In this document: positions 531 through 21,332 of the stretch, in pieces
How the letters are laid out: each line of letters starts with the position of its first letter
Numbering within the stretch: the stretch's first letter is position 1
From: an uncultured Pseudomonadaceae bacterium
Lineage (GTDB): Bacteria; Pseudomonadota; Gammaproteobacteria; Pseudomonadales; Pseudomonadaceae
Assembly: GCA_947630465.1 (NCBI GenBank)
Contig: CANRHT010000006.1
Coordinates: 1 to 23,108 of the forward strand
Direction: 5' to 3'
DNA length: 23,108 nucleotides
The notes under the pieces: model-generated
The model's input: the letters and a program-made list of their open reading frames with translations, nothing else
Databases searched by the model: none
Told to the model about the DNA's origin: nothing
Position numbers and translations under genes: made by a program

Positions 531-830
531 TTACTGGTCGCGGTGACTGTCGATACGGGTTAAACGGCCACCGGTGAATCGTAAAAAATATAACATGCCG
601 TTACGTGGACCATACACCCATTCTTCAATATGAAGCTCAAGACGATTGTAGTCGGCAAGTGTATAGCCAATGTTATCTCGGGCTATGGGCTGACCGCATT
701 TGCGCAGTACTTGAAACGAGCGATCACCTAAGCTCACTAATTGTGTGCCGCAGCGAAAGGTGCTGGCTAATGAGGCGGTACTGATGAGTGCTAGCAGGAT
801 TGCTAAGGTTGTTTTGGTTAAATACGTCAT
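531..830 (-). CDS. Secreted DUF2845 family protein (first tandem copy)
   Basis: About 99 residues, with an N-terminal signal peptide (roughly the first 22 residues, hydrophobic and ending ASLAS). The mature domain has FRCGTQLVSLGD, RKCGQPIA, EEWVYGP and YFLRFTGG motifs typical of DUF2845. I chose the ATG at 830 over a GTG at 833 because GGAAG sits six bases before the ATG. The ATG shares one base with the TGA stop of the upstream DUF748 gene (TGATG), so translational coupling is likely. It is paralogous to the next gene downstream. A longer C-terminal tail (DSHRDQ) and a shorter middle loop are the main differences. Function is unknown. Confidence 0.77.
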   Translation of the reverse strand: MTYLTKTTLAILLALISTASLASTFRCGTQLVSLGDRSFQVLRKCGQPIARDNIGYTLADYNRLELHIEEWVYGPRNGMLYFLRFTGGRLTRIDSHRDQ

Positions 831-3721
831 CACATACTTCCTAGGTGTAGAGTGCTGATCACCTGTTGCTTAGCATTTGTTTTTCCTTCGCTCACGTCTA
901 ATAAATAGACACGCTCAGGGTCAAGTTGTGCTTGCTCAATTAAGTATTCTTTAATGCTATTGGCGCGTGCTTGCGCCAAACGACGTAAGCCTAAAATGCT
1001 GTGTTGATAGCTGTCCAGTACAGCTGTGCGCATGTGTTGCTCACGTTCTTGCTTATTCAGTTGTGCCCATTCGGCAGGAGGTTGCTGTTTGAGTTGTGTG
1101 CGATAGATGCCTTCAAGCAGTGCTGGTTTTTCTCCATCGGGCACAATAAGGTCTTCTTTGTTTGCTTCAATCTTGCTACCGCGTCGTTGTAAAATGCTGT
1201 ACCAGGCATTTTGGTAGGCGGCACTCAGTCGCATCTGACTTAAGGGTTCAGCGTCTAAGTCGGCTCTACTGCCCCCCTCGATCTCTAAGCGTAATTGCGG
1301 GCGTTTTTGCAAACCTTGGGCTAGCGTATCGAGACTTTCTGCAATGCTGGCGTTAAGGGTGAACTCGCCTGGAGCAAAGGCTATTTCTTGCAGTTCTTTG
1401 GCATCTTTGTTGACTAAACCAGCCAGCATATTGAATGGAGCAGATACGGCGCGGGTAATTAAGTTGCGCAGGGTTTTCCAGACAATGGGTGCAACTTTAA
1501 ACTCGGGGTTATTTAAATCGCCCTGCACGGGTAAATCAAGCTTGATGCGGCCTTTACTGTCTTTGAGTAAGGCAATTGCTAGGCGCACAGGTAAATCTAC
1601 AGCGTCAGGGCTATCAACACGCTCACCAAGTTGTAATTGCTCTAGTAATAAGCTGTTGCTGGCGTTGAGTTTGCCGTCAGTGATTTTATAGTGCAGATCC
1701 AGATTTAAACGGCCTTTCTGAATACGGTAGCCTGCAAATTTACCGGAGTATGGGGTGAGAGTTGTCAACTCTAGGTGCTTAAAACTGGTGGCAATATCTA
1801 GATTTTTAAGTGGATCGTTCGCTATAAGGTGGCCCTTAATTGTTACGGGCGCATAGCGATCAACGTTACCTTTTATGTCGACTGTCGTTGGTTTATTACT
1901 TGTGCTGTCTAGCGTGCCTATTTGTCCATTGAGTTGCTGTATAGCCGTAGCGAAATTGGGTGTCAGACTAAAATCTGCGAAGTTTGCAGAACCGTCTTTG
2001 ATATCGATGCCGCCAATCTGTAGAGCAAACTCAGGTTTTATATTTTCTGCTTGATTGGCGGTGGTTTGTAGCTGATCAGTCAGTAGTTCACTGATGTTTG
2101 TAGTGAGGTTTTCGTTGATAATAAAGCGCACGTAAGGCTGTTGTAATGCCAATTTGCTCATGAAAAGCTGTTGCTGTTGTAGATTATAATTTATGCCTTC
2201 GATATCAACAGTTTGCCATTTTAATAAATCGCGTGAACGTAAGCTATCGCGCAAGTGCAGTTGATTGATTGCGGCATTGCCTTGTAATGATAGCTGCAAG
2301 TCTTCGGCTTGATTGATCTGCAACTTAACTGCGCTACTGAGTAAAGCGCTGCGCAGTTCTACGTGGGCGTAAGGGCTGATCCAGGCTTGTGCAGGGCGCA
2401 AGTCAAGGTCGCTTGTATTCAGTGTCATATCAACGTTCAGCGGCTGTAAACTAACGCTGGCACTGCTACTGATCTTGCCTTGTTCGCCAATCTGGCTATC
2501 AAGCTCAACAAGAAAACGTGAACCTGCTGTGCTATCAAAATCTTTTACTTGCAGGTTTAGATTGTGCAACTCAAGCGCAACGGGCTGACTTTGGCTTAAG
2601 TCGGCTAAATGAAGTTGCTGTTGTTGAAAATCTGCCTGTTTAACACTGATACGCCACGCAGAATGATTAGAGCTTTGTTTACTCTGTGCGAGAACTGCAT
2701 TGTTGCTAGAAGGGGAGTCAGCCGTTGGCAATAATTTCTGCCAGTTGAGAACGCCTGACTTATCAATCTGTGCCCAAGCTTCAAGTTTAGAGCTGTGTGT
2801 TTTGCCAATGATTAAACGCTGCTTGGTGAGATCAAAAGAGCTGTCACTGATACTCAGCTGTGCTAGGCGTAGCAAGGGTTGTTGCTGCTGTTGGTTGAGG
2901 GCTAAGTTGCTGAGCTTGGCGCTGAGTTGGTTGGCTGTGAATTGTAAAGTTGGGCTGAGCTCAAGTGTGTAGCGAGTGTCTAGATTAATACGACCATCGG
3001 TCAGTTGCGCGCTAAAGTGTTCGCGCACGTAAGGCCACCAACTTTTCAGTTTTGCATCAGTTAACTGCACGTGCCCGCTAGAGCTGAGCGGACTCATGCT
3101 GATATCGCCTTGCCAGTGCAGTTGCGTCCCGTCGTTGGCTTGAGCTGTCAGTTGTAGAGTGCTACGCGTACTAGGGCTGGTATCAAAATTATTTAAGGTG
3201 ATATCTAAATTAGCAAAGGTTACATCGACGGTGTCCTGTTGACGTTGGTCGTTAAAACGAGCGCTGCCTTGTTGTAAGTATATACGGTCAATCAGGACAA
3301 TCAGTGGCGTATTTGCAGTGCTTTCTGCTGGCTTTGAGCTCTGCGGTAGATTAAAAAGCTGTGTGAGATTGAACTCGCCGTTCTTGTCAAAAATCACCTG
3401 TGCTTGAGGTTGTACAAGCTCTACATTGTCTAGGTGTAAGCGCTGCGTCCACAGACTATCGTATGCAAATTTGCCATACAGGTGCTGCAAGCTGGCTTGA
3501 TGATTGTTGCTGTCGCCGAGGTGAAAGCCCCATGCGTTGAGCTCAAAGCTAAACGGGTTCAGCTCTAAACGCTGTAAATGAGCAGGCGTATTGGCATAGA
3601 GGGATAATTGCTGGTTGATGACGTGCAAGGTCACGCTGGGTATCAGTAAAAAACCTAACCAGCTATATACAGCTAGGCAGCTGATTAAAATAACGACTAA
3701 GCGTTTGAACCCTTTGCGCAT
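830..3721 (-). CDS. DUF748 / AsmA-like envelope protein
   Basis: A 963-residue protein with one N-terminal membrane anchor (about residues 9-31: LVVILISCLAVYSWLGFLL), after which the chain should lie in the periplasm. The body is long, rich in beta-strand-like alternation, Gln and Leu. It includes IGGIDIKDGSANFADFSL and YSGKFAGYRIQKGRLNLDL segments characteristic of DUF748, a branch of the AsmA/TamB-like superfamily. The C-terminal ~180 residues contain a family-typical region with LRLEIEGGSR and an ARANSIKEYLIEQ segment. AsmA-like proteins are thought to help maintain the outer membrane or bridge lipids between membranes; that role here is inference. The ATG at 3721 is preferred over a GTG at 3724: AAGGAG lies about eight bases upstream. 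It overlaps the first DUF2845 gene at TGATG, indicating an operon. Confidence 0.85.
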   Translation of the reverse strand: MRKGFKRLVVILISCLAVYSWLGFLLIPSVTLHVINQQLSLYANTPAHLQRLELNPFSFELNAWGFHLGDSNNHQASLQHLYGKFAYDSLWTQRLHLDNVELVQPQAQVIFDKNGEFNLTQLFNLPQSSKPAESTANTPLIVLIDRIYLQQGSARFNDQRQQDTVDVTFANLDITLNNFDTSPSTRSTLQLTAQANDGTQLHWQGDISMSPLSSSGHVQLTDAKLKSWWPYVREHFSAQLTDGRINLDTRYTLELSPTLQFTANQLSAKLSNLALNQQQQQPLLRLAQLSISDSSFDLTKQRLIIGKTHSSKLEAWAQIDKSGVLNWQKLLPTADSPSSNNAVLAQSKQSSNHSAWRISVKQADFQQQQLHLADLSQSQPVALELHNLNLQVKDFDSTAGSRFLVELDSQIGEQGKISSSASVSLQPLNVDMTLNTSDLDLRPAQAWISPYAHVELRSALLSSAVKLQINQAEDLQLSLQGNAAINQLHLRDSLRSRDLLKWQTVDIEGINYNLQQQQLFMSKLALQQPYVRFIINENLTTNISELLTDQLQTTANQAENIKPEFALQIGGIDIKDGSANFADFSLTPNFATAIQQLNGQIGTLDSTSNKPTTVDIKGNVDRYAPVTIKGHLIANDPLKNLDIATSFKHLELTTLTPYSGKFAGYRIQKGRLNLDLHYKITDGKLNASNSLLLEQLQLGERVDSPDAVDLPVRLAIALLKDSKGRIKLDLPVQGDLNNPEFKVAPIVWKTLRNLITRAVSAPFNMLAGLVNKDAKELQEIAFAPGEFTLNASIAESLDTLAQGLQKRPQLRLEIEGGSRADLDAEPLSQMRLSAAYQNAWYSILQRRGSKIEANKEDLIVPDGEKPALLEGIYRTQLKQQPPAEWAQLNKQEREQHMRTAVLDSYQHSILGLRRLAQARANSIKEYLIEQAQLDPERVYLLDVSEGKTNAKQQVISTLHLGSM

Positions 3722-3835
3722 CACTGCAGCTCCTTAAGTAAACTAAGGCTTAGTGTATGTAAAATATGCACAAAACAGTAGGTGTGGCGATGTTTAGGGG
3801 GGAGATATATGTTGCGAAGTGTTTGTTTGGAAGTG

Positions 3836-3885: not shown

Positions 3886-5064
3886 TTAGCGCTCAATGGC
3901 TAATGCAACACCTTGGCCGCCACCGATACATAATGTAGCGAGACCTTTTTTAACATCACGACGCATCATTTCATGCAGCAAAGTGACTAAAATGCGGCAG
4001 CCTGATGCACCAATAGGGTGGCCCAGAGCAATAGCACCACCATTGACGTTAACTTTGTCAGTGTCCCAAGCCAATTCTTGGTTGACGCTTAACGCTTGTG
4101 CAGCAAAGGCTTCGTTGGCTTCGATCAAGTCTAAGTCAGCTGTAGTCCAGCCCGCTTTACTCAAGCATTTTTGTGTTGCGGCAACTGGGCCAATACCCAT
4201 AATTGTTGGATCAACACCAGCGTTTGCGTAAGCAACGATACGCGCTAATACAGGTACGCCAAGCTCTTTAGCTTTTTCTGCGCTCATCAGCATTACTGCA
4301 GCTGCACCATCATTCAACGTAGAGGCGTTACCGGCAGTCACTGAACCGTCTTTTTTGAATGCAGGACGCAATTTAGCTAATGCATCGGCAGTACTGCCAG
4401 CACGTGGTTGCTCGTCTGTATCAAAGATGATTGGATCACCTTTACGCTGCGGAATGCTCACCGGAGTGATTTCTGCAGCGAAACGGCCCGCAGCAATAGC
4501 CGCAGTCGCTTTTGCTTGTGAAGCTGCAGCGAACTCATCTTGCTGTTCGCGTGAGATGTTGTATTTTTCAACAAGGTTTTCTGCAGTAATACCCATGTGG
4601 ATATCATTAAACGCATCCCACAGACCATCTTGAATCATGGTGTCTACAACTTTACCGTGACCCATACGTAAACCTGTACGTGCACCCGGTAAAATGTAAG
4701 GTGACAGGCTCATGTTTTCTTGACCGCCAGCGATAATAACGTCAGCATCGCCACAACGAATCGCCTGTGCAGCAAGGTGCAGGGCTTTTAAGCCTGAACC
4801 GCACACTTTGTTGAGAGTTAAAGCTGCTGTAGTAAAAGGTAAGCCAGCGTGAACAGCCGTTTGGCGTGCTGGGTTTTGACCGCTACCTGCAGTGAGTACT
4901 TGTCCGAAAATGACTTCGTCAACCTGGTCGGCTGCAACACCTGTTTGCTCAAGCAAGCTACGGATAACAGTAGCGCCTAATTGCGGAGCAGGAATATTAG
5001 CCAAGCTGCCTTGAAAGCTACCTACAGCAGTACGAGTAGCGGCAACAATTACAACTTCATTCAT
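3886..5064 (-). CDS. Acetyl-CoA C-acetyltransferase (thiolase II)
   Basis: A 392-residue thiolase that condenses two acetyl-CoA to acetoacetyl-CoA, or cleaves it in reverse. It could serve short-chain fatty acid or ketone-body degradation or polyhydroxyalkanoate precursor supply. Visible catalytic residues are Cys88 in NKVCGSG (acyl-enzyme nucleophile), His349 in GHPIGASG and Cys379 in CIGGGQG, matching biosynthetic thiolases in position and in total length. NEAFAAQAL lies just before the His motif. The ATG at 5064 has AAGGAT six bases upstream. It stands alone: about 88 bases separate it from pgi and 164 from the DUF748 gene. The leader contains an AACAATAATAA motif and a GGCTC/GAGCC hairpin. 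An atoB or phaA symbol would fit, but the sequence does not decide between them. Confidence 0.93.
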
Positions 5065-5108
5065 AAGTACATCCTTTTTTGGTTTAACGGCTCACTGAGC
5101 CATGATAT

Positions 5109-5152: not shown

Positions 5153-6817
5153 TTAACCGCGGTGACGACTCCTGAAAAAATTAATCAAGCCCTGGGTCGA
5201 TGTATCGGTTGATTGCTGTACAACATGCCCAGTTAAACGCTGATACACATCTTCGCCTAATACTTTACCTAACTCAACACCCCATTGGTCGAATGCATTC
5301 GTGCCCCAGACCACGCTTTGCACAAATACTTTATGCTCATACAGGGCAATTAAGGCACCAAGGCGGCGTGGACAAATACGTTCTAACACGAGCGTATTGC
5401 TCGGCTTGTTGCCTAAGATTTCTTTGTGTGGAGCAAGGCGTTGTACTTCGCTTTCTGGTAAATGTTGCGCACGTAATTCTTGCGCGGCTTGTTCGCGGCT
5501 TTTGCCTTGCATCAAGGCTTGGCTTTGCGATAAGCAGTTGGCATACAACCATTGATGATGATCTGCGATTTGATTGTGGCTTACGACTGGGACAATAAAA
5601 TCAGCGGGTACCAATAAAGTGCCTTGATGCAGTAGTTGGTGATACGCATGTTGACCATTGCATCCCACACCGCCCCAGATCACTGAGCCACTTGAATAGT
5701 TTAAAGCAGTGCCATCTTGACGCACGTGCTTGCCGTTGGATTCCATGTCCAACTGCTGCAAGTGTTGGGTGAAGTTACGCAGGTAATGATCGTAAGGCAA
5801 AATAGCGTAACTTTGCGCTTGCCAAAAATCGCTGTACCAAATACCCAGCATTGCCATGATTACAGGCATGTTTTCAGCAAAAGGCGTTTCTTGGAAGTGT
5901 TGATCCATGCTCCAAGCACCGGCCAATAACTCTTTAAAATTCGACATACCAATCGACAAAGCAATGGGTAAACCTATGGCTGACCATAAAGAATAACGCC
6001 CGCCAACCCAGTCCCAGATGGGGAGAATATTCTCTGGGGCAATACCAAAGGCGACGGCTGCTTCTATATTGCTCGATACCGCAATGAAGTGCCGATCAAC
6101 ACAGGCTTCAGTGCCACCTTGCGCTAAATACCAGCGCCGCGCCGCTTGGGCGTTTTTTAATGTTTCTAGAGTATTAAATGACTTACTAGAGACAATAAAA
6201 AGTGTGGTTTGCGCGTTAAGTGTTTGGCTCAGTTCGTGAAACTCACTGCCATCAATATTGGCTAGAAAGTGACAGTGCACGCCTTGCTGCGCGAAGGGCA
6301 GTAAAGCTTCTGATACCAGTTGCGGACCTAAAAATGATCCACCGATACCAATATTAACCACGTCAGTGATTGGCTTTTCACTGTAACCGCGCCATAAACC
6401 GTTATGAATACGGTTGACCAGTTCTGTCATTTTATTGAGTACGTCGTGAATCAACGGCATTAAATCTTCGCCATCGACTAACAGCGTATCGCCAACAGGG
6501 CGGCGCAGGGCCGTATGTAGCGCAGCGCGCTGCTCAGAGGCGTTTACTTTTTCGCCATTAAAGAGGGCTTTAATAGCATCTTGCAGTTGGCTTTGTTGTG
6601 CCAGTTGCATGAGTAAATTAAGCGTTGTTTCATCTAAAATATTTTTAGAGAAATCGAGCAGTAAACCATCATGGTTGAGCGAAAAACGCTCAAAACGCTT
6701 TGGATCTGCGGCAAAAGCCTCTTGCATACTAAAGCTTTGCATGGCTTCGCGTTGCTTGACTAACAGTTGCCACGCGGGGAGTTGAGCGGCGTCATTAGGG
6801 TTTTGGTAATGGGTCAT
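5153..6817 (-). CDS. pgi: Glucose-6-phosphate isomerase
   Basis: A 554-residue cytoplasmic enzyme interconverting glucose 6-phosphate and fructose 6-phosphate. Both family signatures are present: [14 protein letters not shown] (about 269-282) and [17 protein letters not shown] (about 502-518). Expected catalytic residues are visible: Glu359 in MESNGK, His390 in CNGQHAYH and Lys518 at the end of the second signature. The phosphate-binding SSKSFNT segment is at about 210-216. Length equals the usual bacterial Pgi. The start at 6817 has only a weak AGAG-type ribosome binding site but matches the family's N-terminus. It follows panD by 63 bases on the same strand, the order known from Pseudomonas, and may be co-transcribed with the pan genes. 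Confidence 0.97.
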
Positions 6818-9060: not shown

Positions 9061-9570
9061 TTAAATAGTGCAAGATTGCTGTGCGGGTAAGCGCTGTAGT
9101 GTTGGGTCGATAGGACAGTCGCGTAGCAAGTCTGCCAGTCGGCGGCCGTCAGCTAACTTAAAGTCTGTTGGGCATAAATCAGCTAAAGGTAACAAAACAA
9201 AAGGTCGCGCATGCATATGATAATGCGGAACGCAGAGGCGCTCGTCAGCCAGTATATGCTGGCCAAAGAGTAAAATATCTAAATCTAAAGTGCGTGGCCC
9301 CCAGCGCTCAGCTTTACGCACACGGCCCTGCTTGAGTTCAATGGCCTGCAGGTGATCGAGTAGTTGATGTGCTGTTAAAGTCGTAGCGAGGTGTGCGGCG
9401 GCATTGGTATAGCGCGGCTGGTCACTTGGACCTAACGGCGCGCTGGAATAATAAGCGGAGACAGCCACTAACTCTGTCTGTGGTAACTGAGACAGTGCGC
9501 TCAATGCGGCGTCCAGTTGTGCGACAGGTTCAGCGAGATTACTGCCTAAACCAATATACACCTGCTCCAT
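9061..9570 (-). CDS. folK: 2-amino-4-hydroxy-6-hydroxymethyldihydropteridine pyrophosphokinase
   Basis: A 169-residue HPPK, which pyrophosphorylates 6-hydroxymethyl-dihydropterin in folate synthesis. It has the N-terminal GLGSNL motif (7-12), the pterin-loop SSAPLGPSDQPRYTNA region (about 42-57) and the signature RWGPRTLDLDILLF, whose Asp96 and Asp98 bind magnesium. The PHYHMHARPFVLLPL segment near residue 115 is also conserved. Its ATG shares one base with the pcnB stop (TAATG), so translation is coupled to pcnB. Folate output links it loosely to panB, which uses methylene-tetrahydrofolate. Confidence 0.96.
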   Translation of the reverse strand: MEQVYIGLGSNLAEPVAQLDAALSALSQLPQTELVAVSAYYSSAPLGPSDQPRYTNAAAHLATTLTAHQLLDHLQAIELKQGRVRKAERWGPRTLDLDILLFGQHILADERLCVPHYHMHARPFVLLPLADLCPTDFKLADGRRLADLLRDCPIDPTLQRLPAQQSCTI

Positions 9571-10943
9571 TACTCTTGGCCTGCTTGCATGTGGCTGGGT
9601 TTGCTGGTGCGAGGCTTGCGGCGACGTTTGCGAGCAGGTGCGCCTTGACTGGATAAATTGCTGATCATGTCGCGGCGTTGGCTATCGCTGGCGTCTTGGT
9701 AGTCAGTCCACCAGTCACCTAGGTTGTGAGTATGCTCGCCAGCGCTTTCACGTAACAGCAAGAAATCATACCCGGCACGGAAACGCTGGTGGGCTAACAA
9801 CATATCGGCACGCTTGCCTGCACGACGCGGCAAGCGCTCTTGCATGTCCCATATTTCACGGGTAGGAATACTAAAGCGCTTGGGTATTGCTACTGTTTTT
9901 AATTGCTCGAGTAATACTTGATGCGCCGCCTCTTGCATGGCAGGCAAAGGATGCATACCGTCGTTTTGCAAGCTGATGGCGCGCGCGGTTAATGCGGGCC
10001 AAAGTAAGGCAGCAAATAAATACGCTGGAGTAACAGGTCGATCGGCGCTGATGCGCTTATCAGTATTGCTAAAGGCATTACGCAGTAAGCGATTAACATA
10101 TTCAGGGTTTTTCTCTAGCGCTTTGGCGGTGCTTGGGAACAGCGGCGCAAAGAGTCCGTATTCGCACAGCAGTTCATAGGTGCGCACCGCGTGGCCGCTG
10201 AGAAATAGCTTGAGGACTTCTTCGTACAAACGAGCAGCAGGAATGTCTCGCAGTAAATGCGCTAAGCGATGAATAGGCTCTGCAGTGCTGTCTTCAATGT
10301 CAAAATTGAGTTTGGCAGCAAAGCGTATCGCGCGCAGCATGCGTACGGGGTCTTCTAAATAGCGTTGTTCTGGATCGCCAATCAGGCGAATTAAGCGGCG
10401 CTGAATGTCAGCAAAACCAGTGCTGTAGTCATATACTTTTTCGTTGCTGACATCAAAGTACAGCGCATTCATGGTGAAATCGCGGCGTTGAGCATCATCA
10501 GCCATGCTGCCGTAAACGTTGTCACGTAAAATACGACCACTGGCATCGTGTGCCGAGCGGTCGTTGTTGTCATCGGTTGTTTGCGAGTGATCACTGCGAA
10601 AGGTCGCAACTTCAATCAGTTCACGACCAAAGTGCACGTGCACCAACTTAAAGCGTCGACCAATGATGCGTGAGTTGCGAAACTCATAACGCACTTGTTC
10701 GGGGGTGGCGCTGGTGGCCACATCAAAGTCTTTTGGAGTGACACCCAAGAGCGAGTCGCGCACACAACCGCCCACTAAATAAGCTTCAAAGCCGGCTTGC
10801 TGTAAACGTACGGCGACATTGGCTGAGTTGCGCGTGAAATCCGCGCAGCTTAAACGGTGCTCGTGTGCATCAAGTACGGTCGGGCCAGAGGGCTGTTTGG
10901 CCTTGCGTGAAAGGCGAAAGGGTTTAAAAAGCTTTTTCAGCAT
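9570..10943 (-). CDS. pcnB: Poly(A) polymerase I
   Basis: A 457-residue class II nucleotidyltransferase that adds 3' poly(A) tails to RNA and promotes decay. The nucleotidyltransferase core has LVGGCVRDSLLG (56-67) and the catalytic DFDVAT (72-77). RRDFTMNALYFD and YLEDPVRMLRAIRFAAKL follow, as expected. The last ~25 residues are strongly basic (RKRRRKPRTSK), as in PcnB rather than CCA-adding enzymes. The ATG at 10943 has only a weak ribosome binding site; pcnB starts are unusual in some bacteria, so a non-canonical upstream start is possible. A sigma-70-like promoter lies about 140 bases upstream (11086-11114), leaving a long 5' untranslated region. CrcZ is transcribed toward it, the arrangement known in Pseudomonas. 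Confidence 0.95.
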   Translation of the reverse strand: MLKKLFKPFRLSRKAKQPSGPTVLDAHEHRLSCADFTRNSANVAVRLQQAGFEAYLVGGCVRDSLLGVTPKDFDVATSATPEQVRYEFRNSRIIGRRFKLVHVHFGRELIEVATFRSDHSQTTDDNNDRSAHDASGRILRDNVYGSMADDAQRRDFTMNALYFDVSNEKVYDYSTGFADIQRRLIRLIGDPEQRYLEDPVRMLRAIRFAAKLNFDIEDSTAEPIHRLAHLLRDIPAARLYEEVLKLFLSGHAVRTYELLCEYGLFAPLFPSTAKALEKNPEYVNRLLRNAFSNTDKRISADRPVTPAYLFAALLWPALTARAISLQNDGMHPLPAMQEAAHQVLLEQLKTVAIPKRFSIPTREIWDMQERLPRRAGKRADMLLAHQRFRAGYDFLLLRESAGEHTHNLGDWWTDYQDASDSQRRDMISNLSSQGAPARKRRRKPRTSKPSHMQAGQE

Positions 10944-11114: not shown

Positions 11115-11190
11115 CGAGGAAAGTGATTAAGTCAATCAAGGTCAGTAGCGAGTAAGGGCGTTGAGGTGAAGGGAGTGTGATGGGGCTATT

Positions 11191-11543
11191 GAAATAATAG
11201 TATGGAGGAAGGCGAACCTTCCTCCATGTAATATGCTTGGCGTTGTTTTTATTATTGTGGCATTTTTGTTGTTGTTATCTGCCTGCTGTGTAACCAGCCT
11301 ATTGATCAGGCTGTAAAAGTTAACGGATTGCTTTGAATGCTGATGATCTTGTAGCTGTTTCAGTTAATACGGGTGCTGCATGATCTGCAGTTTTATTATT
11401 CTCGGATTATCTGTATCGCTACCTTCATTATCCTCTGCAAAGTAATCAGTTAGCTGCGTCTCCCATGCTGTTGTTTTTATTGTGCTGGAGCCGTTACGTC
11501 TTATTCTTATTATGGTTTTAGTATTTGTTATTGTTGTTATGTC
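11191..11543 (-). ncRNA. crcZ: CrcZ small RNA (Hfq/Crc-sequestering)
   Basis: A predicted RNA of about 350 nt, close to the size of Pseudomonas CrcZ, which binds Hfq/Crc and relieves carbon catabolite repression. Minus-strand AAYAAYAA motifs occur as an overlapping triple at 11538-11525 (AACAACAATAACAA), singly at 11400-11393, as a double at 11276-11266 and singly at 11256-11249; 11514-11507 matches at 7 of 8 positions. The 3' end is a perfect 11-bp hairpin with a 4-base loop (11202-11227) and a weak U tract. A sigma-54 promoter sits exactly where the 5' end should be, putting the start near 11543. It lies directly upstream of pcnB on the same strand, the known crcZ locus. A 76-codon Ile/Thr-rich frame inside it is an artefact of these repeats. 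The 5' and 3' ends are inferred. Confidence 0.85.
11202..11227 (-). terminator. CrcZ 3' hairpin terminator
   Basis: The arms ATGGAGGAAGG and CCTTCCTCCAT pair perfectly over 11 bp around a 4-base loop, UUCG in the minus-strand RNA. The minus strand continues ACTATTATTTC, a poor U tract, so efficiency is uncertain. Position and strength fit the end of CrcZ. Confidence 0.7.
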
Positions 11544-11553
11544 TAAATACAAA

Positions 11554-11568
11554 GCAGGTGCTGTGCCA
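11554..11568 (-). promoter_or_regulatory. Sigma-54 (-24/-12) promoter of crcZ
   Basis: On the minus strand the sequence is TGGCAC, five bases, then CTGC. This gives the obligatory GG-N10-GC spacing of RpoN promoters with a perfect -24 box and one mismatch in the -12 box. The predicted start is near 11542-11543, immediately before the first CA motif cluster. CrcZ of Pseudomonas is transcribed by RpoN with the activator CbrB. Confidence 0.8.
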
Positions 11569-11664
11569 TCTTTTTTAATTCTCTTATAAATCAATGGCTT
11601 ATGTTTTTTGTTGCCTGCTGGAGCTGTGTTGCGGTGCTCTGTGTAAGTGAGCCGTGGTGCGAAG

Positions 11665-11714
11665 TGTTACCTGTGGCTACGTTAGGTGTTACGTGCCGAG
11701 GGCTGGGGGTAACA
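11665..11714 (-). promoter_or_regulatory. Candidate CbrB upstream activating sites
   Basis: Three TGTTAC/GTAACA half-sites lie at 11665-11670, 11687-11692 and 11709-11714, each start exactly 22 bases from the next. Two point one way and the third is inverted, making a TGTTAC-N16-GTAACA inverted repeat. They sit about 100-160 bases upstream of the sigma-54 promoter, the normal place for enhancer sites. From memory, CbrB recognises TGTTAC/GTAACA inverted repeats; the exact published spacing should be checked. Confidence 0.6.
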
Positions 11715-14957: not shown

Positions 14958-15401
14958 ATGCGCGCATTAACAGCAGTATCGCGATTTACCTTTCCTTGTC
15001 GGGTCTACTACGAGGATACGGATGCAGGCGGCATCGTTTATTACGTGAATTATCTAAAATTCATGGAGCGTGCTCGCACTGAGCGTTTGCGTTATTTGGG
15101 CTTTTCTCAAGCGCAAATGGCCACCGAGAATCTACTGTTCGTTGTGCATTCCTCGCAAGCACGTTATCACGCTCCAGCTCGTTTAGACGATGAGCTGGTG
15201 GTGAGTGCGCAGGTGGAAGTATTAAAACGTGCCAGTTTGAAATTTTATCAGCAAGTGCGCCGCGCCAGTGATGATGTGTTGCTCTGTGAAGGGCATTTTA
15301 CTGTGGCCTGTGTGCATGCCGATACCCTAAAACCTCGGGGCATTCCCGAACAGTTATATGCGGCCTTTAAGGCTGATGTGCAAGATTTTGCAGGAGAGTA
15401 A
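14958..15401 (+). CDS. ybgC: Tol-Pal associated acyl-CoA thioesterase YbgC
   Basis: A 147-residue hotdog-fold thioesterase of the 4-hydroxybenzoyl-CoA thioesterase type, first gene of the tol-pal operon in many proteobacteria and linked to membrane phospholipid metabolism. The signature [17 protein letters not shown] (16-32) contains the expected catalytic Asp22, with [14 protein letters not shown] after it. At the position of Escherichia coli YbgC His25 (VYHASY) this protein has Tyr29 (VYYVNY). The gene starts at ATG 14958 with GAGG about eleven bases upstream and ends two bases before tolQ, indicating a single operon. Confidence 0.92.
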
Positions 15402-15403
15402 GC

Positions 15404-16099
15404 GTGGAAGCCAATGCCGTTGATCAGATGTCGATGTGGAGCCTAATCAGCAACGCCAGTCTGGTTGTTCAGTTTGTAATGTTGATCTTAGTGGGAGCCT
15501 CCATTACCTCATGGGTAATCATCTTCCAGCGCAGCCAATTACTGCGCGCTGCTCGTGCAGGCTTAAATAGTTTTGAAGATCGTTTCTGGTCCGGTACAGA
15601 CTTATCTAAACTCTACCGTCAGGTGTGTAATAACGCTGATCTGGATTCTGGTGTAGAGCAGATCTTTCGTGCTGGTTTCAAAGAGTTTTCACGCTTAAAC
15701 CAGCAGCCAGGCGCCAACCCCGATTCAGTAATGGAAGGCGTAGCACGCTCGATGCGTGTGGCGATTTCCCACGAAGAAGAAAAGCTTGAGCAAAGCCTAC
15801 CGTTTTTAGCCACGGTGGGTTCGACCAGTCCTTATATCGGTTTGTTCGGTACGGTCTGGGGCATCATGAACTCATTCCGCGGTTTAGCCCAAGTGCAGCA
15901 AGCCACTTTGGCGACGGTCGCGCCGGGTATTGCTGAGGCCTTGATTGCCACCGCCATTGGTTTGTTTGCGGCGATTCCTGCGGTGATTGCTTATAACCGT
16001 TTTGCCGCGCGCGGTGAAAATTTGATCGCGCGTTATTACACCTTTGCTGATGAGTTTCAAGCCATTTTGCATCGTAAAGTCCACTCCAAAGAGGATTAA
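15404..16099 (+). CDS. tolQ: Tol-Pal system protein TolQ
   Basis: A 231-residue inner-membrane protein of the TolQ/ExbB/MotA proton-channel family, which with TolR converts proton flow into motion of TolA. Three membrane segments are visible (about 18-40, 130-155 and 165-190), with a large cytoplasmic loop between the first and second. VGSTSPYIGLFGTVWGIMNSF and APGIAEALIATAIGLFAAIPAVIAYN are the conserved channel segments. It uses a GTG start at 15404, supported by GGAGA upstream and by the N-terminus MEANAVDQMSMWSLISNASL, which resembles Pseudomonas TolQ. Confidence 0.97.
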   Translation: MEANAVDQMSMWSLISNASLVVQFVMLILVGASITSWVIIFQRSQLLRAARAGLNSFEDRFWSGTDLSKLYRQVCNNADLDSGVEQIFRAGFKEFSRLNQQPGANPDSVMEGVARSMRVAISHEEEKLEQSLPFLATVGSTSPYIGLFGTVWGIMNSFRGLAQVQQATLATVAPGIAEALIATAIGLFAAIPAVIAYNRFAARGENLIARYYTFADEFQAILHRKVHSKED

Positions 16100-16107
16100 G
16101 GTGCCCC

Positions 16108-16566
16108 ATGCATAGAGGTCGGATTCGTAACCGTCGCAAACCCGTTGCTGAAATGAACGTGGTGCCTTATATCGACGTAATGCTGGTACTGCTGGTGATT
16201 TTTATGGTCACTGCACCCATGCTTAATCAAGGCGTAAAAGTTGATCTGCCACAGGTCAGTAGTGAAGTGTTGCCGCAAGATAATAATTCTATTGTGCTGA
16301 CCATTTCGATTCAGCCCGATAAGAGCTATTACTGGAATACCAGTACCGAAGTGGATGTCGACACAGTGCAAGATAAAGCAGTTGATCTGGCGCAAATGGT
16401 CAATGCAGCGCGTGCTATTTTGGCGGCGAATGCAGCCCAAGGTAAAAAGGTGCAAGTGTATGTACGTGCCGACAAAACAGTGGACTATGGCAGTGTTATG
16501 GCTGCGATGGGTGGCTTGCAGCAAGCAGGTGTGACTGATGTTGGCTTAATTACTGAGGCACCTTGA
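16108..16566 (+). CDS. tolR: Tol-Pal system protein TolR
   Basis: A 152-residue TolR/ExbD protein: a short cytoplasmic N-terminus, one membrane helix (about 21-41) and a periplasmic domain that contacts peptidoglycan. The helix carries the essential proton-pathway Asp23 in VPYIDVMLVLLVIFMV. The C-terminal VRADKTVDYGSVMAAMGGLQQAG is the family motif. It begins eight bases after tolQ with AAGGTG as ribosome binding site, and its TGA overlaps the tolA ATG by one base. Confidence 0.97.
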   Translation: MHRGRIRNRRKPVAEMNVVPYIDVMLVLLVIFMVTAPMLNQGVKVDLPQVSSEVLPQDNNSIVLTISIQPDKSYYWNTSTEVDVDTVQDKAVDLAQMVNAARAILAANAAQGKKVQVYVRADKTVDYGSVMAAMGGLQQAGVTDVGLITEAP

Positions 16567-17705
16567 TGCAGCAGCATGATCGTTCTTCTTCGGAAAATTT
16601 GTTTTGGCCGGTGGTCTGGGCTGTTGGCTTGCACGCGATGCTGTTTGCATTTTTGTTCGTCAGCTTTTCTAAAACACCAGAGTTGCCGCCAGCACGGCCA
16701 GTGATTAAAGCCACGCTCTATCAATTGCAATCACAAAGTCAGGCCACTACGCAAACCAATCAGAAAATTGCTGGAGAAGCGGCGAAAACCTCAGCGCAGC
16801 GTTACGAAACTGAGCAATTAGAGCAGAAAAAAGTCGAGCAAGAGCGTTTAGCTGCTTTAGCAGAAAAAGCTGCACAAGCTCAATCCAGTGCAGCTGCGCG
16901 TGCTGCGCAAGCACGTAAAGAGGCGCAGCAGAAAGCGGCCGAGGCACAGCAAAAAGCGGCTGCAGAAAAACAAGCGCAAGCCAAACAGCAGGAGCAAGCC
17001 AAGCAAGAGCAGGCCAAACTCGCTGCCGAGAAGCTTAAGCAGGCTGAAGCTGCGAAACTCAAGGCAGCTGAAGAGGCGAAGAAAAAAGCCAGCGCCGATG
17101 CACAGAAAAAAGCAGCGCAAGAAGCCGCTAAGAAAGCTGCGGATGACGCGCAGAAAAAAGCGGCCAAGGCGGCTGAAGACGCGAAAAAGAAAGCTGCCAC
17201 CGATGCTGCTAATAAAAAAGCCGCTGAGGATGCGAAGAAAAAAGCTGACGCGGATAAACAAAAGCGTGCCGCCGAGGAAGCTGCCAAGCAACGCAAGGCG
17301 CAAGAGGCCGCGCGCAAAGCTATGGAAGATAAAAAAGCCGGAGCCTTAGCTGAATTATTATCCGAGAGCACGCAGTACCAGCAAACCGCTGCCGATACTC
17401 AAGGTTCGCAAGTGGCGGGTGGCTTAGATGACTTGATTCGCATTCGGGCATCTGAAGGCTGGACGCGTCCACCGGGTGCAACGAACGGTATGACAGTGAT
17501 CATTCAAATTAATATGTTGTCAGATGGTACGGTAACTAATGTGAGTGTGGCACGCAGCAGTGGTAATCTGCCCTTTGATAACTCAGCGGTGGCTGCAGTA
17601 AAAAACATTGGACGATTGGTAGAAATGCAGCGCTTAAGTGCTAATGAGTTTGCACCGTATCGTTCGTTTAAAATGACATTCTCGCCTGAGGATTTAGCCT
17701 TGTGA
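16566..17705 (+). CDS. tolA: Tol-Pal system protein TolA
   Basis: A 379-residue protein spanning the periplasm: an N-terminal membrane helix (about 13-35, with His23 in the TolQR-interaction face), a long Ala/Lys/Glu-rich helical stalk (about 65-260) and a C-terminal globular domain (about 280-379) that binds TolB/Pal. The stalk DNA is low-complexity (repeated AAG/GCG/GCT codons) and creates several long shadow reading frames on both strands. The ATG at 16566 overlaps the tolR stop (TGATG); an in-frame TTG three bases earlier is less likely. Stalk sequence is poorly conserved, so identity rests on architecture, context and the C-terminal motif [19 protein letters not shown]. Confidence 0.95.
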
Positions 17706-18997
17706 TGAAAATATTTAAAACACTTTTTCTGGTTCTGTTATGCGCGCAGGCGATGGCTGACGAGAAAAACATCCGTGTCACCAGTGGTACTGATCGGGCG
17801 GTGCCCATCGCGGTAGTCCCTTTTGCTTGGCAAGGTGGCAGTGCATTGCCAGAGGATATTGGGCAAATCGTGGCCAATGATTTGCGCAACTCAGGTTCTT
17901 TTGAGCCTATTGCGCGTCAGAATATGATCAGTCAGCCTGCACAAGTGGGCGAGGTGATTTTTCGAGATTGGACAGCTATTGGTGCACAGTATCTTTTAGT
18001 GGGTAAAATCACGCCTGATGCAGGACGCGTTCAGGTCAGCTATGCACTGATCAACGTAACTACCGAGCAAGTGATGCTCAGTGGTAGCGTCGGCGGTTCG
18101 GTTGAGCAGTTGCGCGATTTGGCGCACCATATTTCTGATCAGTCGTATGACAAGCTGACCGGTGTTAAAGGTGCGTTTTCAACACGTTTGCTGTATGTCA
18201 CAGCGGAGCGTTTTTCCGCCAGCAATACCCGCTATACTTTGCAGCGTGCGGATTACGATGGTGCGCGTGCAGTCACTTTGTTGCAATCGCGTGAGCCCAT
18301 TTTGTCACCGTCGTTTGCTCCTGATGGTAAGCGTATTGCCTATGTGTCGTTTGAGCAAAAACGCCCACGTATTTTTGTGCAAAATATTGAAACCGGACAC
18401 CGCGAACAAGTCACGAACTATGAGGGCTTAAATGGTGCACCGTCGTGGTCACCGGATGGCAATCGTTTAGCTTTTGTTTTATCGCGTGATGGTAATCCAG
18501 AGATTTATGTCATGGATATGAGCTCACGCCAAGTGCGCCGAGTGACCAATCATGCAGCGATTGATACTGAGCCATTCTGGGGTAAAGATGGGCAAACGCT
18601 GTACTTCACTTCTGACCGTTCAGGCAAACCACAAATTTACCGGATGAACATCAATGGCGGCGCTGCTGAGCGTGTGACCTTTATTGGTAACTACAATGCT
18701 AATCCTAAATTATCCGCTGATGAAAAGACCTTGGTGATGATTCATCGTCAAGACGGCTATGCTGTGTTTAAGGTCGCTGCACAGGATTTACAGCGCGGTA
18801 ATTTACGTATTTTATCTGACTCAAGTTTAGATGAGTCACCTACTGTTGCGCCCAATGGAACAATGGTAATCTACGCTACTCACCAACAGGGCAGGGGTGT
18901 CCTGATGCTTGCATCTATCAATGGGCGGGTGCGGCTCCCACTACCTAGCATTCAAGGCGAAGTCAGAGAGCCTTCATGGTCCCCTTACCTAAACTGA
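17705..18997 (+). CDS. tolB: Tol-Pal system periplasmic protein TolB
   Basis: A 430-residue periplasmic protein with a signal peptide ([18 protein letters not shown], cleavage expected after residue 18). An N-terminal alpha/beta domain follows (about 20-160, including VVPFAWQG and LVGKI), then a six-bladed beta-propeller built from WD40-like repeats such as [36 protein letters not shown] and [19 protein letters not shown]. The propeller binds Pal. The ATG at 17705 shares one base with the tolA stop; the in-frame GTG one codon before is less likely. The C-terminus EPSWSPYLN is typical. Confidence 0.97.
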
Positions 18998-19043
18998 TGG
19001 TGAGTGAACTCACTTAATAATGTTGTTTTTTGGAGCTTGTAAA

Positions 19044-19553
19044 ATGGAAATGCTTAAATTCGGTAAACTTGCCGCTTTATCATTGGCTTTGGCTGTTGCA
19101 GTAGGTTGTTCTTCTAAAGGCGGCGACGCTAGCGGTGAAGGCGCAATTGATCCGAATGCGGGTTACGGTGCTAACACGGGCGCTGTTGACGGTAGCTTAG
19201 ATGGCTATGCGAGTGAAGAAGCAGCGTTGCGTGCAATCACTACGTTTTACTTTGAATTCGACAGTTCAGACCTGAAACCAGAAGCCATGCGCGCACTTGA
19301 TGTGCACGCGCGTGACTTACAAGGTAATGGCGCACGTGTTGTGCTCGAAGGTCACGCCGATGAGCGTGGTACGCGTGAATACAACATGGCACTGGGCGAG
19401 CGTCGTGCTAAAGCCGTACAGCGTTACTTAGTTCTGCAGGGTGTTTCACCTGCACAACTTGAGCCAGTATCGTACGGCGAAGAGCGTCCAAACGTGATTG
19501 GTCATGACGAAAGCTCATGGTCACAAAACCGTCGCGTTGAACTGCGTAAGTAA
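19044..19553 (+). CDS. pal: Peptidoglycan-associated lipoprotein Pal (OprL)
   Basis: A 169-residue outer-membrane lipoprotein that anchors the outer membrane to peptidoglycan and binds TolB. The signal sequence ends in AVAVGC, so lipidation is expected at Cys22. A flexible Gly/Asp/Ala linker precedes the OmpA-like domain, with [37 protein letters not shown] and NRRVELRK. Asp and Arg of the DERGTREYN motif bind meso-diaminopimelate. The open frame extends eight codons upstream, but ATG 19044 is chosen: GGAG lies eight bases before it and [12 protein letters not shown] matches Pseudomonas OprL. It follows tolB by 46 bases. Confidence 0.97.
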
Positions 19554-19565
19554 AAGGTAAGCTAT

Positions 19566-20351
19566 ATGATCCGTTCTACCCTGATAACCTTGGCCCTCGG
19601 CCTGCCCATGGTGGCAAGCGCTGCGATCCCAGTCACTGACCGCTCAGCATATGATCAAACCTATGCTGGCACAGAGCAGGGTATGAACGGTTCTGCGGCT
19701 GCAGGTGGTGCTTCGGCACTGCCTTCAGCTCAAGCTCAGCTGTTTATGCAGCTGCAACAGATGCAACAAGAAATTGCTACGCTGCGCGGTATGCTTGAAG
19801 AGCAGCAATATGAAATCACCCAGTTACGCCAAGAAAATCTTGAGCGTTACCAAGTGTTAGACAGCCGCATAAGTGGTGCAACACAACAAGCTACGAGTTC
19901 AACTACGGCGACTGAAGCGCCTGCTACGAGCACGGCCAGTAACTCAACGCCTGCAGAGCCAGCCTCTGCTGCTGATCCTGAAAAGGAAAAGCTATTTTAT
20001 GAAGCCTCTTTTGATTTAATTAAAGAGCGTGATTTTGATAAAGCGCAGCAAGCCTTCACGGCTTTTTTGCGTAAATACCCAAGCAGTCAATATGCGGGCA
20101 ATGCCCAGTACTGGTTAGGTGAAATACATTTAGTACAGAATGACTTGCAAGCGGCAGGTAAAGCTTTTGCATTGGTGGGCGAGAATTATCCAGAGCACAA
20201 TAAAGTGCCGGATTCATTGTACAAGCTCGCTGATGTTGAGCGTCGATTAGGGCGTGTTGACCGTGCGCGTGGCATTTTACAACAAGTACTCGCCCGCTAC
20301 CCCAACACCTCAGCGGCACAGTTGGCTGAAAAAGATCTAGCCAAACTCTAA
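19566..20351 (+). CDS. cpoB: Cell division coordinator CpoB (YbgF)
   Basis: A 261-residue periplasmic protein that links peptidoglycan synthesis to Tol-driven outer-membrane constriction. It has a signal peptide (about 1-19, ending VASAA), a trimerising coiled coil (about 57-97, LQQMQQEIATLRGMLEEQQ onward), a Thr/Ser/Ala-rich linker (about 105-140) and C-terminal TPR repeats (about 143-261: FDLIKERDFDKAQQAF, YWLGEIHLVQNDLQAAGKAF, YKLADVERRLGRVDRARGIL). It starts 12 bases after pal with AAGG eight bases upstream, and it is the last tol-pal gene. In Pseudomonas queE usually follows; here it does not. Confidence 0.95.
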   Translation: MIRSTLITLALGLPMVASAAIPVTDRSAYDQTYAGTEQGMNGSAAAGGASALPSAQAQLFMQLQQMQQEIATLRGMLEEQQYEITQLRQENLERYQVLDSRISGATQQATSSTTATEAPATSTASNSTPAEPASAADPEKEKLFYEASFDLIKERDFDKAQQAFTAFLRKYPSSQYAGNAQYWLGEIHLVQNDLQAAGKAFALVGENYPEHNKVPDSLYKLADVERRLGRVDRARGILQQVLARYPNTSAAQLAEKDLAKL

Positions 20352-20364
20352 TATACGGCTGTAA

Positions 20365-20397
20365 GCACTCTGTAATTTTAAACATAAAACAGAGTGC
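20365..20397 (+). terminator. Hairpin after cpoB, possible tol-pal operon end
   Basis: GCACTCTGT (20365-20373) and ACAGAGTGC (20389-20397) form a perfect 9-bp stem with a 15-base AT-rich loop, 14 bases after the cpoB stop. No T run follows, so it is a weak intrinsic terminator at best. The remainder of 20398-20520 contains no recognisable gene or queE remnant. Confidence 0.4.
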
Positions 20398-20520
20398 GGC
20401 ACGCGCAGTGTATTGAGCCATCTCGTCAGTTAGGCGTTCAGTTGCCCGTATGCGTTTATATCGTGATGCGGCCACTGATATCTGTACCCTAGCGCTGGTT
20501 TAAAATTTGAGGGGATCCCC

Positions 20521-21198
20521 ATGAGCAATAAGCGGGCAGTGGTTTTACTGTCAGGTGGCTTAGACTCAGCAACAGTGCTGGCGTCGGTTCGCGCGCAAGG
20601 CTTTGATTGCTACACCATGAGCTTTGATTACGGCCAGCGCCATCGCAGTGAGTTAGACGCCTCACGTCGTATTTCCAAAGCGCTAGGTGCCCTTGAGCAT
20701 AAAGTGATTGGGATTGATTTAGATGGTATCGGTGGTTCGGCACTGACCGATAGCACGCTGGCGGTACCGCAAGCCGCGACTCAGGGCGAAATTCCAGTGA
20801 CCTATGTGCCCGCGCGCAATACCGTTTTTTTATCGCTGGCGCTGGGTTGGGCGGAAGTGCTGCAGGCTTATGATATTTTTATCGGCGTCAATGATGTCGA
20901 TTACTCAGGCTATCCCGATTGTCGCATGGCCTTTATTCAAGCCTTTGAGCGTGTGGCTAACTTGGCAACCCGTGAAGGCGTTGAAGGACGCACCTTTCGG
21001 ATTCAAGCGCCCCTGCAAAGTATGAGTAAGGCTGATATTATTCGGCTTGGGACGCAGTTAGAGGTAGACTATGCGCTCACCGTATCTTGTTATCAGGCCG
21101 ATCTTGAGGGTCGCGCTTGCGGGAACTGTGAAAGCTGTCAACTGCGAAAACAAGGTTTTATCAACGCAGGAATCAACGACGTAACACGATACTTTTGA
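20521..21198 (+). CDS. queC: 7-cyano-7-deazaguanine synthase
   Basis: A 225-residue ATP-dependent enzyme converting 7-carboxy-7-deazaguanine to preQ0 in queuosine biosynthesis. The PP-loop is SGGLDS (11-16). [29 protein letters not shown] and [14 protein letters not shown] are conserved. Zinc ligands are the four cysteines at 190, 200, 203 and 206 (C...CGNCESC). The ribosome binding site GAGGGG is part of a perfect GGGGATCCCC palindrome directly abutting the ATG. The preceding pathway enzyme QueE, normally encoded just upstream in Pseudomonas, is absent from this window. Confidence 0.97.
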
Positions 21199-21216
21199 CA
21201 AAAATAAAACTTTCGC

Positions 21217-21244
21217 TTGATCTGAGCTCAAAAAGCCGTATGAT
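21217..21244 (+). promoter_or_regulatory. Sigma-70 promoter of tRNA-Lys
   Basis: TTGATC (21217-21222) and TATGAT (21239-21244) are 16 bases apart; transcription would start near 21251, just before the tRNA. A consensus TTGACA at 21195-21200 overlaps the queC stop but has no well-spaced -10. Confidence 0.5.
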
Positions 21245-21257
21245 TCGCATCCCTTTC

Positions 21258-21332
21258 GGGTCGTTAGCTCAGTGGTAGAGCAGTTGGCTTTTAACCAATT
21301 GGTCGTAGGTTCGAATCCCACACGACCCACCA
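21258..21332 (+). tRNA. tRNA-Lys (anticodon UUU)
   Basis: A complete cloverleaf: acceptor GGGTCGT pairs with ACGACCC (21322-21328), followed by discriminator A and an encoded CCA. The D arm is AGCTCAGTGGTAGAGC, the anticodon stem TTGG/CCAA holds loop CTTTTAA (anticodon TTT), and the T arm contains GGTTCGAATCC. It lies between queC and nadA, as in Pseudomonas. No T-rich hairpin terminator is visible immediately after it. Confidence 0.98.

What the first reader, a model, noticed from the sequence alone, without database searches (positions are those of the whole stretch)
11191..11568. CrcZ-type regulatory RNA hidden in a region with no protein gene
The minus strand carries at least four clusters of the AAYAAYAA motif, a terminal 11-bp hairpin, and a GG-N10-GC sigma-54 promoter at the expected 5' end, beside pcnB as in Pseudomonas. 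The repeats generate a 76-codon Ile/Thr-rich open frame (11364-11594), so automated annotation may list a false protein and miss the RNA. At about 350 nt it looks shorter than the Pseudomonas aeruginosa form, so motif number and spacing may differ.
Basis: partly seen in the sequence, partly recalled or inferred. Interest (0 to 1): 0.7.

Follow-up and report, generated by a model that had tools for sequence, protein, structure and literature searches.

The report
CrcZ RNA separated from its regulator
The stretch encodes CrcZ, a known small RNA thought to let Pseudomonas-type bacteria switch to less preferred foods by soaking up the protein Hfq; here it lies far from the regulator genes that usually sit beside it, and similar-looking sequences turn up in many related bacterial families.

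Summary
Present are a sigma-54 promoter, three CbrB-type subsites, an IHF-like site, six A-rich Hfq-type sites (six also reported for PAO1) and a covarying 11-bp terminal hairpin. The 76-codon frame starts upstream of the inferred transcript start and is not conserved. The genome also encodes CbrAB, Crc, Hfq and RpoN.

(1) In this genus (Denitrificimonas and relatives) and in a second genus that groups with it in a CbrB tree, crcZ-pcnB is not next to cbrAB; 73 of 78 testable named pcnB loci have cbrB upstream. (2) Texts call CbrAB exclusive to Pseudomonadaceae, yet 20 of 21 other-family genomes of the order (one per family) encode a CbrB orthologue. In 18 of those 20 a sigma-54 box followed by A-rich repeats lies downstream of cbrB and/or upstream of pcnB, against 3 of 6000 shuffled copies of these gaps. 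Expression and function are inferred, not shown.

The parts
11202..11542 (-). CrcZ sRNA, inferred transcript from +1 (about 11542) to end of terminal hairpin, about 341 nt; Rfam match spans 11176-11540
   Evidence: Rfam; +1 inferred 12 nt after the C of the -12 element; fold z-score -3.47
11554..11568 (-). sigma-54 promoter TGGCAC-N6-TGC
   Evidence: TGGCA and TGC invariant in 30 of 30 aligned Pseudomonadaceae sequences
11709..11714 (-). CbrB forward-type subsite TGTTAC (read on the minus strand)
   Evidence: conserved in 12 of 12 aligned sequences; motif from PMC6296734 passages
11687..11692 (-). CbrB reverse-type subsite R1 GTAACA
   Evidence: conserved in 12 of 12
11665..11670 (-). CbrB reverse-type subsite R2 GTAACA
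   Evidence: conserved in 12 of 12
11589..11601 (-). IHF-like site TAA-N4-TTGATT between the CbrB subsites and the promoter
   Evidence: Read; TAA-N4-TTG in 12 of 12 and TTGATT in 10 of 12 aligned sequences; IHF consensus recalled; IHF assisting CbrB at crcZ from PMC6296734 passage
11525..11538 (-). A-rich site 1
   Evidence: six AANAANAA clusters at matching positions in the 11 genus members
11501..11511 (-). A-rich site 2
11471..11481 (-). A-rich site 3
11393..11400 (-). A-rich site 4
11263..11276 (-). A-rich site 5
11243..11256 (-). A-rich site 6
11202..11227 (-). terminal 11-bp hairpin, followed by ACTATTATTT (weak T tract)
   Evidence: 6 of 8 counted pairs have changes on both sides among 11 genus members
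11364..11594 (-). probably spurious 76-codon frame (TTG start lies about 52 nt upstream of the inferred +1)
   Evidence: no family match
9570..10943 (-). pcnB, poly(A) polymerase, downstream neighbour
   Evidence: TIGR01942, 560.3 bits
11914..13032 (+). yeiH-family transporter gene, divergent; stands where cbrB would be in Pseudomonas
   Evidence: TIGR00698, 355.2 bits

Best explanation
This is crcZ, the gene of a roughly 341-nt decoy RNA. When carbon is poor, the CbrA-CbrB two-component system, with IHF and sigma-54 RNA polymerase, turns on the promoter at 11554-11568. The RNA's six A-rich stretches then bind the distal face of Hfq and pull Hfq (with Crc) off catabolic mRNAs, so those mRNAs are translated. 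In this lineage cbrAB lies elsewhere in the chromosome, so crcZ depends on its own CbrB-activated promoter and cannot get basal transcription from read-through of cbrB. Shown here: the RNA family match, conserved promoter and CbrB-type subsites, A-rich sites, covarying hairpins, presence of the partner genes, and the broken linkage. Inferred from Pseudomonas work: transcription, CbrB and IHF action, Hfq binding, the physiological role, and the effect of losing read-through.
For: Rfam CrcZ 172.1 bits against a cut-off of 95, whole model 1-398; the only CrcZ match in the own genome. Promoter, subsites and IHF-like site are conserved across 12 relatives whose flanking DNA is otherwise diverged. 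Six A-rich clusters recur in 11 of 11 genus members; PAO1 CrcZ also has six, and its first 151 nt bind Hfq by the distal face (PMC4063720 passages). Covariation: 10 of 25 pairs change on both sides, 0 of 500 shuffles reach this. Own genome: a 259-aa Crc at C170 (best solved relatives 2myi, deposited as exodeoxyribonuclease III, 450.5 bits, and P. aeruginosa Crc 4jg3, 440.5 bits), Hfq at C147, RpoN at C57, CbrB at C51 (729 bits), CbrA split over contigs C51 and C207. Unlinked: single-contig genomes G008 and G004 have cbrAB about 0.53 and 0.70 Mb from crcZ; cbrB is absent from 11 of 11 genus crcZ loci (about 1.5 kb of flank each) and present in 4 of 4 family controls.
Against: No transcript or binding data. 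The T tract after the hairpin is weak, so the 3' end may be processed, or transcription may run into pcnB. The sigma-54 box and the GTAACA words alone are not rare in the window. The window is from a 76%-complete assembly. One genus member, G001 (83% complete), has no CrcZ match.
Confidence: 0.94

Rival explanations
1. The region encodes a small Ile/Thr-rich protein (frame 11364-11594).
For: An open frame of 76 codons exists; frames of 90 and 65 codons stand at the same place in G009 and G002.
Against: TTG start about 52 nt upstream of the inferred +1; no Pfam or NCBIfam match; frame not kept in 8 of 10 other genus members; conservation follows A-rich sites and paired stems.
Confidence: 0.02
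2. It is a 5' leader or cis-regulatory element of pcnB rather than a free sRNA.
For: Same strand, the hairpin ends about 258 nt before pcnB, and its T tract is weak.
Against: Full-length match to an RNA known as a separate sRNA. Similar units are not always beside pcnB: in G023 one lies near neither pcnB nor cbrB, and G042 has extra units elsewhere.
Confidence: 0.05
3. A decayed CrcZ, no longer functional because cbrAB moved away and the genome is small.
For: Lower bit score than in family members with larger genomes (172 against up to 354).
Against: Promoter, subsites, six A-rich sites and stems are conserved across the genus with compensatory changes, and the partner genes persist.
Confidence: 0.03

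Closest known systems
CrcZ (Rfam RF01675), Pseudomonas aeruginosa/putida
   Same: Sigma-54 promoter, CbrB subsites, six A-rich sites, stems, terminal hairpin, pcnB downstream (PMC4063720, PMC6296734 and PMC8395346 passages)
   Different: About 341 nt (inferred) against 407 nt in PAO1; cbrAB not upstream (yeiH-family gene in the window; an iron-type alcohol dehydrogenase gene, named by eye, in several relatives), so no read-through from the cbrB promoter
CrcY / CrcX, further CrcZ-type RNAs of P. putida, P. fluorescens and P. syringae (PMC8395346 passage)
   Same: A-rich CrcZ-type RNAs; crcY is CbrB-driven (PMC6296734 passages). That they lie away from cbrB is recalled
   Different: The window RNA is beside pcnB, so it is positionally the crcZ copy, and it is the sole match in its genome
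CrcZ-like units near cbrB or pcnB in other Pseudomonadales families (this work)
   Same: CbrB-type words, TGGCAY-N6-TGC, A-rich clusters starting 8-32 nt after the box
   Different: 14 of the 18 have no Rfam CrcZ match; apparent lengths vary widely, some about 80-170 nt

Membership tests
CrcZ (RF01675) | Covariance-model score above gathering cut-off | tested here: met
   172.1 against 95 bits, model 1-398
CrcZ (RF01675) | Several A-rich (CA / ARN) Hfq-type sites | tested here: met
   Six clusters, above shuffles
CrcZ (RF01675) | Sigma-54 promoter with CbrB subsites upstream | tested here: met
   (sequence only)
CrcZ (RF01675) | Gene between cbrB and pcnB (usual context, which I do not take as defining) | tested here: not met
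   pcnB downstream but cbrB is elsewhere. Not taken as defining because CrcY/CrcX are CrcZ-type RNAs at other places (location recalled) and the Rfam model is of the RNA alone
CrcZ (RF01675) | Partners Crc, Hfq, RpoN, CbrAB encoded in genome | tested here: met
CrcZ (RF01675) | Transcription induced on poor carbon by CbrB | not testable with these tools
   Needs RNA from the organism
CrcZ (RF01675) | Binds and titrates Hfq | not testable with these tools
   Needs a binding assay

The most novel reading that the evidence does not exclude
The CbrAB to sigma-54 to A-rich decoy RNA circuit is ancestral to the whole order Pseudomonadales rather than exclusive to Pseudomonadaceae. The RNA is often far shorter than CrcZ and mostly invisible to Rfam. 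The window's lineage is a derived state in which regulator genes and RNA parted once, in the ancestor of two genera, giving a natural experiment on what cbrB-crcZ linkage and read-through are for.
Probability: 0.72. Interest if true: 0.62.

Novelty: new member of a known kind. Interest (0 to 1): 0.45.

Why it matters
The RNA in the window is ordinary CrcZ and deserves annotation in place of a probable false small protein. [quoted passage not shown] A lineage without the linkage lets one test that directly. If real, the CrcZ-like units in other families would extend Hfq/Crc-type carbon control across an order and would supply very small natural decoys for finding the minimal working unit.

Tried and rejected
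Protein reading of 11364-11594: rejected. A second CrcZ or a remnant beside cbrB in this genus: none seen; the AANAANAA count in the 1000 nt downstream of cbrB in G008 is 0, and another gene follows cbrB within about 30-35 nt in G000, G004 and G008. Extra sigma-70 promoter for basal crcZ: two weak matches, no more than shuffles (mean 1.6), neither upstream of +1. Single motifs (TGGCAYN6TGC, GTAACA) over the whole window: not above chance. Crc orthology in other families is uncertain: of the 21 genomes, 16 have a best match of 189-288 bits, G056 135 (part of the protein), G051 118, G052 97, and G037 and G053 none, while non-Crc exonuclease III-type proteins can reach 184 bits. The R1 model misses f7, f11, f12, f17 and f21, which look clear by eye, and only 149 first-look candidates per genome were scored. 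In one search the count of A-rich motifs downstream of cbrB is reached by at most 6 of 300 shuffles in 17 of 19 other-family loci (G036 left out because its contig ends; f10 300 of 300, where the unit lies further on beside pcnB; f18 20 of 300), and in none of 11 paralogue loci (lowest 10 of 300).

Full report
1. Identity. Rfam's CrcZ model matches window 11176-11540 on the minus strand with 172.1 bits (cut-off 95, E 3.9e-46), over the whole model. It is the only CrcZ match in the window's own genome, a 2.2-Mb assembly of 308 contigs, 76% complete. The nearest named relatives by PcnB are Denitrificimonas caeni and gammaproteobacterial MAGs at 83-85% identity. Two genus genomes, G006 and G009, have contigs of exactly the lengths of the D. 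caeni records NZ_CAJHOA010000006.1 and NZ_ATXQ01000004.1.

2. Anatomy. Reading the minus strand: TGTTAC (11714-11709), GTAACA (11692-11687), GTAACA (11670-11665), an IHF-like site (11601-11589), TGGCAC-N6-TGC (11568-11554), inferred +1 about 11542, six A-rich clusters, and an 11-bp hairpin (11227-11202). The three subsite words stand in 12 of 12 relatives whose flanks are otherwise diverged. The words, and the layout of one forward and two reverse subsites, are those described for P. putida crcZ and crcY (PMC6296734, passages). Six A-rich clusters (AANAANAA) at matching positions recur in 11 of 11 genus members, some of which have more. PAO1 CrcZ is 407 nt with six A-rich stretches, and Hfq binds the first 151 nt by its distal face (PMC4063720, passages). 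Four helices taken from the consensus fold keep 96.4% of cells paired, with 10 of 25 pairs changed on both sides (0 of 500 shuffles) against 1-3 when slid; 6 of the 10 are in the terminal hairpin and 3 in the helix before it. The number of further pair types is not above shuffles (462 of 500 reach it), and the structure came from the same alignment, which favours it over the slid versions.

3. The small frame. The 76-codon frame starts with TTG upstream of the inferred +1, matches no family, and is not kept in 8 of the 10 other genus members; G009 and G002 keep 90 and 65 codons. It is most likely a by-product of the A-rich repeats.

4. Partners. The own genome encodes CbrB (C51), CbrA (split over contigs C51 and C207), Crc (C170), Hfq (C147) and RpoN (C57). 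The neighbours of crc look like pyrE and rph by eye (names recalled). IHF genes were not searched for.

5. Broken linkage. Upstream of crcZ in the window is a divergent yeiH-family gene, not cbrB. The PcnB scan kept the best 80 of 571 confirmed loci, mostly Pseudomonas. Of these 80, 73 have cbrB upstream; 7 do not, of which 2 (L035, L060) have too little DNA upstream to tell, leaving 73 of 78; the 5 exceptions (L031, L032, L033, L034, L040) are the Denitrificimonas-type relatives. In the genus, 11 of 12 genomes including the own one have a CrcZ match, and none of those 11 crcZ loci, with about 1.5 kb of flank, holds cbrB, against 4 of 4 family controls that do. In single-contig genomes G008 and G004 the distance is about 0.53 and 0.70 Mb. 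Two genomes of another genus, g7, also have crcZ-pcnB and cbrAB on different contigs, with no cbrB on the pcnB stretch; their CrcZ scores, 93.6 and 82.7 bits, are just below the cut-off. In a CbrB tree g1 and g7 form one clade (support 0.968), so one move in their ancestor is the simplest reading; the gene after cbrB looks the same in g1 and in G017 but not in G033 (by eye). A review says crcZ receives read-through from the cbrB promoter that keeps basal levels high, and that the gene order is highly conserved and described only in Pseudomonas and Azotobacter (PMC8871633, passages). Here such read-through should be impossible; that it matters is inference.

6. Beyond the family. The set of relatives holds 21 genomes from other families of the order, one per family. 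CbrB orthologues (448-653 bits; the best paralogue reaches 340) occur in 20 of 21; G053 lacks one. cbrB and pcnB lie on one fetched stretch in 17 of the 20 (in f10 about 2.8 kb apart); f8 is unlinked, f2 is broken by contig ends and f3 is undetermined. Downstream of cbrB and/or upstream of pcnB I looked for TGGCAY-N6-TGC (at most one mismatch), a first AANAANAA 8-36 nt later, and at least three within about 150 nt. This criterion was set after looking at the sequences. It is met in 18 of 20 (16 without mismatch), each of the 18 with at least one perfect TGTTAC or GTAACA within 260 nt upstream; f9 has too few A-rich motifs and f18 has none of it. Controls: 0 hits in 696,036 bases of other held DNA and 0 in 200,132 bases of the same loci outside the gap, both strands, but this DNA is probably mostly coding and less A-rich (its make-up was not measured). 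A composition-matched control gives 3 of 6000 shuffled gaps (0 of 6000 without mismatch), and the opposite strand of the gaps gives 0 of 20. A less post-hoc test: a sequence model trained on 30 Pseudomonadaceae promoters only, run over whole genomes, has its best hit at this place in 12 of 21 other-family genomes. At E of 0.001 or less it gives 9 hits in 8 of these genomes, all 9 at this place; f13 and f14 are found there but not as the best hit, and f7, f11, f12, f17 and f21 are missed. Rfam CrcZ in the same 21 genomes gives one hit over cut-off (f2, 110.8 bits) and weak ones in f8, f20 and f14 (f2, f8 and f20 repeated), so 14 of the 18 have no Rfam match, whose filters were the stricter ones. 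Some units look very short: the distance from the estimated start to the end of the first terminator-like hairpin is about 81 nt in f4 and 100 nt in f14.

7. Literature. Searches of the open-licence library gave no listing that announces CrcZ outside Pseudomonadaceae. Of the few co-mention papers I looked at passages of two: PMC5073097 reports cbrA and cbrB transcripts in a mesopelagic seawater community, with no host taxon in the passages seen, and PMC5715377 places CbrA in the Pseudomonadaceae. The two CrcZ-Halomonas co-mentions were not opened, and subscription papers are mostly not held, so this is not proof that nothing is in print. Two texts call CbrAB exclusive to the family (PMC6296734, PMC8871633, passages).

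8. Verdict. The window feature is a well-preserved CrcZ: a new member of a known kind in an unusual setting. The order-wide extension is the more novel part and rests on one genome per family and on sequence alone.

Noticed in passing
L244 (G040, f6) 4970-5076 and 5361-5504: Two CrcZ-like units in tandem between cbrB and pcnB, each with its own CbrB-type words and sigma-54 box. G046 (f12) also has two composite hits in its gap.
   Followed up: partly
L233 1737-1838 and 2484-2584, L234 3706-3805 (G042, f8): Extra CrcZ-like units away from both cbrB and pcnB, two of them in tandem, besides the copy upstream of pcnB.
   Followed up: partly
L231 about 4150-3870 minus (G023, genus g13 of Pseudomonadaceae): Rfam finds no CrcZ in this genome, but a short CrcZ-like unit (GTAACA words, TGGCAT-N6-TGC, A-rich sites, hairpin) lies near neither cbrB nor pcnB.
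   Followed up: partly
L247 3385-3659 (G052, f18): cbrB and pcnB are adjacent with no A-rich unit between them, and the best Crc match in that genome is only 97 bits: a possible joint loss of Crc and its decoy, one case only.
   Followed up: no
L190 952-2145 (G013, genus g3): The CbrA match covers only its C-terminal part in a frame of about 400 aa, as if the transporter part were missing; cbrB-crcZ-pcnB still linked.
   Followed up: no
L248, L249 (G047 f13, G049 f15): cbrB with a downstream unit but no CbrA match on the fetched stretch at E 1e-15.
   Followed up: no
window 830-3724: 964-aa protein with DUF748/AsmA matches and an OmpA-like match, no NCBIfam name; two small DUF2845 proteins follow at 531-833 and 219-518.
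   Followed up: no
window 14958-21329: ybgC-tolQRAB-pal-cpoB, queC, then a tRNA at 21258-21329: an ordinary conserved block.
   Followed up: no
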